In this document: positions 5,005-49,208 of the stretch, one piece after another
Position numbering within the stretch: position 1 is the stretch's first letter
Layout of the letters: each line of letters opens with the position of its first letter
Source: Halorhabdus tiamatea SARL4B
GTDB taxonomy: Archaea; Halobacteriota; Halobacteria; Halobacteriales; Haloarculaceae
NCBI RefSeq assembly: GCF_000470655.1
Contig: NC_021921.1
Coordinates: forward strand, 2,356,001 to 2,420,000
Direction: 5' to 3'
DNA: 64,000 nucleotides
Notes under the pieces: generated by a model
Seen by the model: only the letters and a program-made list of their open reading frames with translations
Database searches by the model: none
Told to the model about the DNA's origin: nothing
Program-made: the position numbers and the translations under genes

Positions 5005-5107
5005 AGCCGGATCGCTCGTCTCCCCACGACCGTCCGTTTTTGTCCGCGTCCTGCTTTGCTCTCGATTTCGTTGTCCGACAGTCGAACCCACCTAAGTCAG
5101 CGAGGGA

Positions 5108-5180
5108 GTCCCGCCGTCGTCGGGCGAGGCCCGACTGCCTGAGGGATCTCCGATCCCTCTCTGTTCACGGCGGGCGGGAA
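5108..5180 (+). repeat. Left-end structured element of TnpB copy 1 (three-way junction)
   Basis: An outer stem (5110-5117 with 5167-5174, 8 bp) encloses two perfect hairpins: 5119-5125/5129-5135 (7 bp, 3-base loop) and 5141-5147/5153-5159 (7 bp, 5-base loop). It ends GGGAATCGCG, a sequence also present in the left end of the third TnpB element (minus strand near 60579-60587). The fold is the same as that at the right end of this element (6518-6582). It lies about 90 bases before tnpB. Whether it acts as DNA (subterminal hairpin) or as RNA is unknown. Confidence 0.75.
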
Positions 5181-5235
5181 TCGCGTAAGCTCCGAGAATC
5201 ACACAACAATCAACAACCCGGCCTACTCCCCTGAA

Positions 5236-5247
5236 TTTTTATATACA
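5236..5247 (+). promoter_or_regulatory. TATA-box region of tnpB copy 1
   Basis: An AT-rich stretch TTTTTATATACA lies 24-35 bases before the tnpB ATG. That spacing would give a nearly leaderless transcript, the usual haloarchaeal pattern. It is inside the element, so the gene carries its own promoter. Confidence 0.55.
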
Positions 5248-5269
5248 TAGAGCCACAAGTGGCGTATAG

Positions 5270-6490
5270 ATGGAGATTAATCGTACCGCAGTTGTCAAGC
5301 TCTCCGTCCCTAGCGACCGCCGTGACGACCTGAAACGGACGATGAACACGTTTCGGGACGCAACACAGTGGTTCGCAGACCGGGGATGGGATGGTGATGA
5401 CGACGGGTACGTGATTACGTCGGGTAATCATCTCCAGCGCCTTGTCTACGACGACATTCGTGAGGACACTGGATTGCACGCTGACCTGACCGTTGCCGCA
5501 GCAGACCATGCCGCGAACGTACTTGATGGGTGCGTTGAAAAAATGAAAGCGGGTGAACGCACCTCAAAGCCGGTGTTCACGTCGAATACAACGGTCTACA
5601 ACACGAACGCAATCACCTACTTCGACGGTTATTGCTCACTGGCCGCGTATGGTGGCAGTCGCGTTCATGCGGAATACATCTATCCAGACGACTCGATTCA
5701 GGCCGAGTATATGGAAAGCGACGAATGGCAGAAACAGGGCGCAAAGCTCCGGTACGACCACCAATCAGATACCTATTATCTCCACGTCTCCGTCAAGAAG
5801 GAACGCGAAGATTCGTCGGGAGAAGCCGAGAACCAATCAACCGTTCTCGGCGTAGACCGGAACGTGGACGGGTATCTCGCAGTCACCAGCACAGGCGCGT
5901 TCATCGGGAACGCCGACCTGCTGAATCACAAACGCCGCGAGTACGAACGCCGCCGCGCTCGCCTCCAACAACAGGGCACACGAAGCGCACACATCACTAT
6001 CCAGTCCATCGGTGACACTTTCGCTAACTGGTCAGAGGACTTCTTGCACCAAGCATCGAAGGAACTGATCAAAGAAGCTGTTTCTCAGAACTGTACGACC
6101 ATTGTCTTCGAGAACTTGGAGAATATTCGTGACTGTATCTCGAACGCCTCGAAGTTCCAGCAATGGGCATTCAACGAACTGAAACGCCAAGTCGAATACA
6201 AGGCGAAGGCCGAAGGAATTTCGGTTAGGACAGTGCATCCAGCCTACACCAGTCAACGGTGTTCCGAAACGGGGTGTGGCTTTACGCACGAGGACAACCG
6301 TGATGGTGACGAGTTCGCGTGCCAGAAATGTGGCAAAGAGCTACACAGCGACTACAATGCGGCGCGAAACATTGCACACAAATATATCCAGAATCGGCGC
6401 AAGTCTGGTTCTGGAGGGGTAACCTATCACCTTGCCCTGAAGTCGGGAACAGTGAACGGGAATGGTGACTACTCACCTTCCACGGTCTAG
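5270..6490 (+). CDS. tnpB: TnpB RNA-guided nuclease (IS1341-type), copy 1
   Basis: A 406-residue TnpB protein. The RuvC-like catalytic residues are all visible: Asp in VLGVDRNVDG, Glu in IVFENLEN and Asp in HSDYNAARNIA. A zinc finger with two CxxC-type pairs (CSETGCGF ... CQKCGK) sits between the last two. Length is normal, so the gene looks intact. Family members are omega-RNA-guided DNA nucleases that cut target DNA next to a transposon-associated motif and help the element persist. The guide would be read from the flank just after the right end (6595 onward, starting TCGTCTTGGCG). No TnpA is encoded. Activity here is inferred from motif conservation. Confidence 0.9.
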   Translation: MEINRTAVVKLSVPSDRRDDLKRTMNTFRDATQWFADRGWDGDDDGYVITSGNHLQRLVYDDIREDTGLHADLTVAAADHAANVLDGCVEKMKAGERTSKPVFTSNTTVYNTNAITYFDGYCSLAAYGGSRVHAEYIYPDDSIQAEYMESDEWQKQGAKLRYDHQSDTYYLHVSVKKEREDSSGEAENQSTVLGVDRNVDGYLAVTSTGAFIGNADLLNHKRREYERRRARLQQQGTRSAHITIQSIGDTFANWSEDFLHQASKELIKEAVSQNCTTIVFENLENIRDCISNASKFQQWAFNELKRQVEYKAKAEGISVRTVHPAYTSQRCSETGCGFTHEDNRDGDEFACQKCGKELHSDYNAARNIAHKYIQNRRKSGSGGVTYHLALKSGTVNGNGDYSPSTV

Positions 6491-6517
6491 TGGATAGACC
6501 GGGAGTTCACCGACAAA

Positions 6518-6594
6518 CCTCGGCGTCGTCGGCCTACGGCCGACTGCTTGAGGGACGAAGTCCCTCTCCGTTCACGCCGAGGTAGGTGATTTAC
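6518..6594 (+). ncRNA. Right-end omega-RNA scaffold of TnpB copy 1
   Basis: The outer stem CCTCGGCGT (6518-6526) pairs with ACGCCGAGG (6574-6582). Inside are hairpins 6528-6534/6538-6544 (loop TAC) and 6550-6556/6560-6566 (loop GAA). The segment ends in TTTAC at 6594, after which the guide would begin. Known omega-RNAs of TnpB elements come from exactly this position, 3' of tnpB and reaching into the flank. Transcription is inferred. Confidence 0.65.
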
Positions 6595-35425: not shown

Positions 35426-35500
35426 GACACAATGTTGATCGGGTGGCGGGTTGTATCCTCCGACCGACCGTCGTCCGCCCGAAGTGGGTCTCGCCAGCCA

Positions 35501-35582
35501 GTAAACTACCCTACCCTACTTCGCTCGGGGGCAATCGCCCCGCTCGCTCGTTGAGGGGAGGGCTTTCGCGTGGACTCCCGTT
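35501..35582 (-). ncRNA. Right-end omega-RNA region of TnpB copy 2
   Basis: GC-rich segment after the tnpB stop. It ends GTAGGGTAGGGTAGTTTAC and has a GGGC-GATT-GCCC hairpin in its middle and a weaker outer pairing between the CCCTCCCC and GGGTAGGG blocks. The guide would begin TGGCTGGCGAGACC (35500 downward). Confidence 0.5.
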
Positions 35583-48778: not shown

Positions 48779-49208
48779 TTGTTTAGACGTTTGATTTCAC
48801 CGCGTTCACGGCCGCTATTGTGGAGCGGTAGAAAGCCCTAACCCGCTTGCGTGTCGTCACTGCGTTCCTCCCGCTCGCTCGGTTCGTTGCCTCTCGTCGG
48901 TCGGAAACGTGGCTCGCGGACGCTGCGTGACATATTCTCGCTTCGCTCGAATAGAGCAAGTGTGGCGGCCGCGAGGCGGTTGCACCGCCTCGAATGAAGA
49001 CGGCGACGCCGTCTCCCCGCCGCCACGTTATAAAGCGGTCGGTGTTCACTGACTGCCCAGGTTGCGAGCCGAAACGGTGCAAGCACCGGAGCGACCGAAC
49101 GAAGGGAGAGTGAGGAGCGCAGCGAGTTGCAGGCTGCCAGCAGTCCGAGGGCCTTCTGCAATATTCGAATAGAGGCTCTATACCGCCACAATTTGAGCGT
49201 CTAAACAA
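48779..49208. mobile_element. MITE-like element with 11-bp inverted ends
   Basis: TTGTTTAGACG (48779-48789) and its exact complement (49198-49208) bound a 430-base non-coding GC-rich block in an AT-rich setting. Inside is a three-way junction: outer 8-bp stem 48962-48969/49019-49026, hairpins 48973-48980/48984-48991 and about 48998-49014. Open frames here are low-complexity shadows. No clear target duplication is visible. The 185 bases before it (48594-48778) hold no gene I can support, only a T-rich terminator-like end of the array. Confidence 0.55.

What the first reader, a model, noticed from the sequence alone, without database searches (positions are those of the whole stretch)
5108..6594. 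Both ends of TnpB element 1 fold into the same three-way junction with compensatory changes
Left (5110-5174) and right (6518-6582) blocks have the same plan: an outer 8-9 bp stem and two 7-bp hairpins. Differences preserve pairing: GTCGGGC/GCCCGAC versus GTCGGCC/GGCCGAC, GAGGGAT/ATCCCTC versus GAGGGAC/GTCCCTC, and outer CCCGCCGT/ACGGCGGG versus CCTCGGCGT/ACGCCGAGG. Selection for the fold at both ends is implied, although an omega-RNA role explains only the right end. The left copy could be a decoy or regulatory RNA, or both may be DNA hairpins for a TnpA acting in trans.
Basis: partly seen in the sequence, partly recalled or inferred. Interest (0 to 1): 0.66.

Follow-up and report, generated by a model that had tools for sequence, protein, structure and literature searches.

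The report
Hairpin repeats inserted in transposon ends
The matching folds at both ends of this archaeal transposon are not a built-in part of it: each end is an ordinary hairpin whose tip has been invaded by a 45-47 letter, two-hairpin repeat that has spread through most salt-loving archaeal genomes, sometimes even landing in frame inside protein genes.

Summary
Both blocks fold as described, and such junctions do not arise by chance. But in other haloarchaea the same TnpB element ends in plain hairpins with a TTCA loop at both ends. In the window each hairpin is broken at exactly GT^TCAC by a 45-47 nt double-hairpin insert (5118-5164 and 6527-6571). One related IS, 97.5-99.2% identical, occurs in three genomes with both ends filled, the left end only, or neither. 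The insert is a dispersed repeat found in 295 of 392 haloarchaeal genomes. Its stems covary strongly and it forms tandem arrays. It also sits outside IS ends, including in-frame 15-codon copies inside two protein genes of this genome; one of them has exact empty sites in relatives. Ends filled by it still transpose. So the compensatory changes belong to the repeat family, not to the two ends of this element. What moves the repeat is not shown: two copy-rich genomes lack any Y1 transposase. Closest precedents are Haloquadratum SMR-A repeats, nested REP dimers and Rickettsia palindromic elements. This is a new variant of a known kind.

The parts
5090..5195 (+). left end of the IS605/IS1341-type element: LE flank AGTCAGCGAGGGAGT, outer hairpin CCCGCCGT...TCACGGCGGG, then CGGGAATCGCGTAAGC
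   Evidence: same flanks and stem as the LE of tnpA-bearing elements in the same genome and of homologous TnpB elements
5118..5164 (+). 47-nt double-hairpin repeat inserted in the loop of the LE hairpin (hairpins GTCGGGC-GAG-GCCCGAC and GAGGGATC-TCC-GATCCCTC, ends CTGT)
   Evidence: absent from homologous left ends; R1 match 71 bits; nearest copies L002 and L003 of the same genome, 93.6%
5238..5250 (+). probable TATA region of tnpB (TTTTTATATACAT), about 20-30 nt before the ATG
   Evidence: read from the sequence; conserved in homologs
5270..6490 (+). tnpB, 406 aa, intact, motifs GVDRN / FENLEN / CxxC / HSDYNAA
   Evidence: Pfam PF07282 E 5.8e-22, PF01385 below its cut-off; motifs
6510..6592 (+). 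right end with outer hairpin CCTCGGCGT...TCACGCCGAGG followed by TAGGTGA (probable 3' part of the omega-RNA, by homology)
   Evidence: plain hairpin in 17 of 17 readable homologs
6527..6571 (+). 45-nt double-hairpin repeat inserted in the loop of the RE hairpin (GTCGGCC-TAC-GGCCGAC and GAGGGAC-GAA-GTCCCTC, ends CCGT)
   Evidence: empty site in L037 at 90.0% flank identity over 400 bp; R1 match 56.3 bits

Best explanation
The element is an ordinary tnpA-less IS200/IS605-type (IS1341-like) transposon with one plain hairpin near each end. Each hairpin loop (GT^TCAC) has independently received a copy of a 45-47 nt mobile palindromic repeat made of two hairpins. Placed in a loop, the repeat turns the hairpin into a three-way junction. 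SHOWN: precise filled and empty sites, independence of the two ends, a dispersed family, covariation of its stems, tandem and mosaic units, copies outside IS ends including in-frame ones, and copies of an element with filled ends at unrelated sites. INFERRED: the loop is a tolerated site because TnpA needs the stem foot and flanking strands and TnpB/omega-RNA tolerates a longer terminal loop, so the insert is mostly neutral to the host IS. INFERRED and uncertain: the repeat spreads through single-stranded or extruded hairpin DNA at YCGT^ sites, more likely by template switching at the shared (C)CGT...CYGT microhomology (about 45%) than by a Y1/HUH transposase in trans (about 35%). The covariation reflects selection or copying filters on the DNA hairpins.
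For: Homologs with plain ends. 172 filled/empty comparisons at 80-99% flank identity, broken at the same point. Same IS in three states in three genomes, tnpB frame intact in all. Ends not coupled: 9 elements left-filled with an empty right end, 1 the reverse, 5 both, 39 neither. 100 parsed copies: 5' flank ends GT in 98, insert ends GT in 96, 3' flank TCAC or TTAC in 88. Covariation 0/500 shuffles. 295 of 392 genomes. In-frame 45-nt copies, one with exact empty sites. Tandem arrays and a different single-hairpin insert at the same point. A filled non-autonomous element at three unrelated sites. No G-U strand bias (A.C 14, G.T 7), which favours DNA over RNA hairpins.
Against: Gain versus precise loss is not polarised by a tree; it rests on the rarity and scatter of filled ends and on different modules at one site. 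Filled left and filled right ends co-occur more than expected (Fisher p 0.003), though closely related genomes and copy-rich genomes could cause that. No experiment shows movement, and the moving enzyme is unknown. Tolerance by TnpA and TnpB is inferred from family knowledge.
Confidence: 0.86

Rival explanations
1. The three-way junction is a selected functional fold of both ends of this IS.
For: Same fold at both ends with paired changes. Several other elements also have both ends filled.
Against: Homologs up to 95% identical in TnpB lack it. Left-filled/right-empty elements are common. Three natural states of one IS. The covariation exists in the repeat wherever it sits, also in protein genes.
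Confidence: 0.05
2. The left block is a decoy or regulatory RNA mimicking the omega-RNA end.
For: It has the same fold as the right block, which by homology lies in the omega-RNA region.
Against: It lies upstream of the tnpB TATA box, is absent from homologs, and left-end inserts elsewhere often carry another second hairpin than right-end inserts.
Confidence: 0.04
3. The left junction arose by gene conversion from the right end of the same element (or the reverse).
For: 83% similar blocks within one element.
Against: The left insert is closer to two other copies in the genome (93.6%) than to the right insert, and the outer stems are unchanged.
Confidence: 0.07
4. A Y1 (HUH) transposase acting in trans moves the repeat as a minimal IS200-like or REPIN-like element: CCGT^ target, hairpin, hairpin, CYGT^.
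For: Architecture and strand-specific insertion at CCGT^ in a loop without a longer target duplication. Four Y1 transposases in this genome.
Against: G186 (32 copies) and G148 (at least 15), both about 99% complete, have no PF01797 protein. No repeat-flanked Y1 gene was noted, but this was not searched systematically.
Confidence: 0.35
5. The three-way junction is the old state and homologs lost the insert by precise deletion between the flanking (C)GT repeats.
For: A deletion between the short CYGT repeats would also give exact empty sites.
Against: Filled ends are scattered and in the minority. Different modules occupy the same point. The in-gene copy is present in 2 of 5 orthologs compared.
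Confidence: 0.06

Closest known systems
SMR-A small mobile repeats of Haloquadratum walsbyi (Dyall-Smith et al. 2011, PMC3119063)
   Same: short, gene-less repeats inserted within the near-terminal palindromes of IS605-type transposons and PATEs; no target duplication; mobiliser unknown
   Different: SMR-A are about 110 bp with inverted terminal repeats and commonly >95% alike within a type; ours is 45-47 nt, has two adjacent hairpins instead of terminal repeats, varies with compensatory changes, is order-wide and enters protein genes in frame
REP dimers nested in palindromes; CGTC- and GTAG-REPs (Di Nocera et al. 2013, PMC3733652)
   Same: small hairpins, often in pairs, sometimes nested inside a larger palindrome and sometimes inside genes; the CGTC super-family has no dedicated transposase; ours also begins CGTC
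   Different: in CGTC-REPs the tag is unpaired, the stem starts with AT and a CCA tail follows; in ours GTC is part of the stem. That survey's CGTC repeats are in five bacterial phyla, none archaeal
Rickettsia palindromic elements (protein-coding palindromes; family knowledge, and PMC3733652, which places the R. conorii ones among CGTC repeats)
   Same: palindromic repeats inserted in frame into protein genes
   Different: sequence kinship not tested, different host; here the favoured site is a transposon-end hairpin
Mitochondrial double-hairpin elements (recalled from family knowledge; papers naming them found, not read)
   Same: two adjacent hairpins, mobile, modular
   Different: organelle genomes; no sequence relation tested
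IS200/IS605 TnpB-only (IS1341-type) elements and PATEs
   Same: the host element itself: terminal hairpins, TnpB, no tnpA
   Different: the three-way junction is not part of the family; it is an insert

Membership tests
IS200/IS605 TnpB-only (IS1341-type) element (the host) | TnpB with RuvC-type catalytic motifs and zinc finger | tested here: met
   PF07282 5.8e-22; motifs GVDRN, FENLEN, HSDYNAA, CxxC in a 406-aa intact ORF
IS200/IS605 TnpB-only (IS1341-type) element (the host) | subterminal hairpin at each end | tested here: met
   outer stems identical in kind to homologs and to tnpA-bearing elements
IS200/IS605 TnpB-only (IS1341-type) element (the host) | ends recognised by a Y1 TnpA | not testable with these tools
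   four Y1 genes in the genome; needs biochemistry
omega-RNA (right end) | transcribed RE hairpin next to the guide, bound by TnpB | not testable with these tools
   position fits; no Rfam match at the gathering cut-off; no RNA data
SMR-A small mobile repeat | insertion in near-terminal palindromes of IS605-type elements | tested here: met
SMR-A small mobile repeat | about 110 bp with inverted terminal repeats | tested here: not met
   45-47 nt, two separate hairpins, no terminal inverted repeat
CGTC-REP | unpaired CGTC tag, stem starting with AT, CCA tail | tested here: not met
   GTC is paired and there is no CCA tail (against PMC3733652)
protein-coding palindromic element (RPE-like) | in-frame insertion in protein genes with homologs lacking it | tested here: met
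   459-aa ORF: 45 nt present in G000 and G072, absent in G070, G071, G002; many histidine kinase homologs align only from the residue after the 15-aa insert
protein-coding palindromic element (RPE-like) | sequence kinship with Rickettsia/Wolbachia elements | not tested
   no direct comparison made
mobile repeat | filled and empty sites in otherwise near-identical DNA | tested here: met
   99.0% over 400 bp beside the site; three states of one IS

The most novel reading that the evidence does not exclude
Haloarchaea carry an order-wide family of double-hairpin mobile elements that enter single-stranded or extruded hairpin loops at CCGT^ without a Y1 transposase, use IS200/605 terminal hairpins as hot spots, and diversify proteins by in-frame 15-codon insertions. 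They would be an archaeal counterpart of Rickettsia palindromic elements and mitochondrial double-hairpin elements, spread by a still unknown mechanism.
Probability: 0.35. Interest if true: 0.76.

Novelty: new variant of a known kind. Interest (0 to 1): 0.58.

Why it matters
It warns that matching folds with compensatory changes at the two ends of an IS can come from a nested parasite instead of selection on the IS; omega-RNA models drawn from a single element could include such inserts. It also suggests that the loop of IS200/605 terminal hairpins tolerates 45-100 nt of structured insert, which is useful for TnpA and omega-RNA engineering. And it gives a set of filled and empty sites, in IS ends and in protein genes, with which the long-open question of how short palindromic repeats without a transposase spread can be tested in culturable haloarchaea.

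Tried and rejected
Rfam gave no match in the window. blastn of the left end against phages found nothing. A decoy-RNA role was considered and set aside (position upstream of the TATA box, absence in homologs). Gene conversion between the two ends was tested by nearest-neighbour similarity and not favoured. A CGTC-REP membership was tested and not met. A Y1 transposase as the only mobiliser was weakened. The flank pattern search is mostly chance matches; only 13 entries are real left-end inserts, picked by eye. No paper describing this repeat was found, but only open-licence PMC text was searched.

Full report
CHECK. The window is G000:C2:2356001-2420000 of a haloarchaeal genome. RNA free energies are -39.6 and -39.5 kcal/mol, z -4.4 and -5.2, with no shuffle as stable; DNA parameters give the same fold for the slightly longer stretches. 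Counting perfect junctions of this geometry gives three in the window and none in 40 surrogate windows. Between them lies an intact tnpB, 5270-6490, 406 aa.

WHAT THE ENDS LOOK LIKE ELSEWHERE. The outer stem and flanks of the left block are those of the left end of two tnpA-bearing elements of the same genome, where the sequence is simply CCCGCCGTTCACGGCGGGCGTGAATCGCGTAAGC. Homologous TnpB elements from other haloarchaea have the same plain hairpin at the left end, CCCGCCGT|TCACGGCGGG, and a plain CCTCGGCGT|TCACGCCGAGG or its like at the right end. Among homologs with TnpB at least 68% identical, 17 of 17 readable right ends and 11 of 13 readable left ends are plain. One left end, L039, carries a different, one-hairpin insert at exactly the same point, and L038 is rearranged. 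In the window both hairpins are interrupted at GT^TCAC, by 47 nt (5118-5164) and 45 nt (6527-6571).

THE INSERT IS A DISPERSED REPEAT. A search of 146 genomes of the family with the left block found matches in 71; reading 60 further regions and parsing gave 100 copies. They have a fixed plan: C, hairpin 1, TGCCT, hairpin 2, TCYGT. The 5' flank ends in GT in 98 of 100, the insert itself ends in GT in 96, and the 3' flank is TCAC or TTAC in 88. On 34 distinct 47-mers 98.2% of cells pair, seven pairs show changes on both sides (41 cells), and no shuffle of 500 reaches this. A.C mismatches (14) are not rarer than G.T (7), so nothing points to selection on one RNA strand. A covariance model (R1) finds the repeat in 295 of 392 genomes of the order and in eight good places in this genome. 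Units are modular: the first hairpin can be joined to another second hairpin (CCGTGGCGTC..GACGCCACG), mainly at left ends, and units stand in tandem inside one loop (L111, L112, L114, L104).

FILLED AND EMPTY SITES. Comparing 400 bp next to each copy with all held loci gave 172 filled/empty pairs at 80-99% identity, broken at the same place. The clearest case is one IS in three genomes, 97.5-99.2% identical over 1614-1687 bp, with an intact 449-codon tnpB frame in each. In G073 both ends are filled, in G005 only the left end, in G099 neither. Over elements sampled by their left end, 5 have both ends filled, 9 only the left, 1 only the right and 39 neither. There is an excess of double filling (p 0.003), possibly from relatedness and copy-rich genomes, but the ends clearly fill independently. 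In the window the left insert is nearest to two other copies of this genome (93.6%) and the right one to other genomes (at most 89%), so they look like separate arrivals.

HOST FUNCTION SURVIVES. A non-autonomous element of about 430 bp, with two tandem units in its left end in all three copies, sits at three unrelated sites in two genomes. Its right end is filled in two copies and empty in one. Filled ends therefore still move, by inference through TnpA in trans.

OUTSIDE TRANSPOSONS. In this genome one copy is in frame in a histidine kinase (15 aa, DREGRSPSSSRTQSD). Homologs on plasmids mostly align only from the residue after it, some from within it. Another is in frame in a 459-aa ORF (GEGHSPSDSRTASGD): its 45 nt are present in G072 and absent in G070, G071 and G002, with GCCGT on the left and at the end of the insert. 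One copy, 47 nt, interrupts a transposase gene in another genome (L147). Genome G186 has 32 copies, several in frame in proteins and many in tandem between genes.

HOW IT MOVES. Not shown. The layout, CCGT^ hairpin hairpin CYGT^, looks like a minimal Y1-mobilised or REPIN-like element, and this genome has four Y1 transposases. But G186 and G148, rich in copies and about 99% complete, have none. I slightly prefer template switching at the repeated (C)CGT, which would also explain mosaics and tandems; this is inference.

KNOWN KINDS. Haloquadratum SMR-A repeats also enter IS605 terminal palindromes, with no target duplication and an unknown mobiliser, but are about 110 bp with terminal inverted repeats (PMC3119063). 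REP dimers nested in larger palindromes, REPs inside genes, and CGTC-REPs without a transposase are described in bacteria (PMC3733652); ours fails the defining traits of CGTC-REPs. Rickettsia palindromic elements and mitochondrial double-hairpin elements are the nearest analogues in behaviour (from family knowledge). I found no report of this haloarchaeal family in the searchable literature. Verdict: a new variant of a known kind; the covarying junction at both ends is explained by two nested insertions.

Noticed in passing
L278 1501-1545 (G000:C2:1466771-1466815): A 45-nt copy of the double hairpin lies in frame, antisense, inside a histidine kinase ORF (559 aa); plasmid homologs mostly align from the residue after the 15-aa insert.
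   Followed up: yes
L279 1501-1545 (G000:C2:862314-862358): A 45-nt copy in frame in a 459-aa ORF, shared with one congener (G072) and absent at the exact site in three relatives.
   Followed up: yes
L016 right end, L022, L025 (G000): A second family of double-hairpin inserts (CGTTCGAGAGAG..CTCTCTCGTGATGACGAGACG..CGTCTCGAACCACT) in IS605-type ends and inside a tnpB gene of this genome.
   Followed up: partly
window 48961-49026: Another perfect three-way junction, GTGGCGGC[two hairpins]GCCGCCAC, of unrelated sequence, next to a TATA-like stretch; not a match to model R1.
   Followed up: no
window 35500-35565 (- strand): The right end of the second TnpB element in the window also has a hairpin with an enlarged, structured loop (CCCTCCCC..CGGGGCGATTGCCCCCG..GGGTAGGG) of another sequence; similar loops in L019, L035 and L272.
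   Followed up: no
L207, L104, L206: A non-autonomous (tnpB-less) IS605-type element of about 430 bp with tandem repeat units in its left end, in three copies at unrelated sites in two genomes.
   Followed up: yes
L070, L071, L076: Left and right ends fused with an insert in the loop, that is, core-deleted terminal-only elements like the 52-bp PATEs of Haloquadratum.
   Followed up: partly
L014 left end (G000:C2, about 200 bp upstream of 1464978): A third kind of long insert in the left-end hairpin of a TnpB element (58% identical TnpB) whose right end is plain; the same element occurs twice in the genome (L014, L015).
   Followed up: no
L333 and L327 (G186:C7): Tandem double-hairpin units inside a histidine kinase give repeats such as NSVEHGSTGSRTESGDSVEHGSTSSEGRSPSGNRAPPGDSRAEPDDSVEHGG, which may explain variable inserts before the VTV motif of haloarchaeal kinases.
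   Followed up: partly
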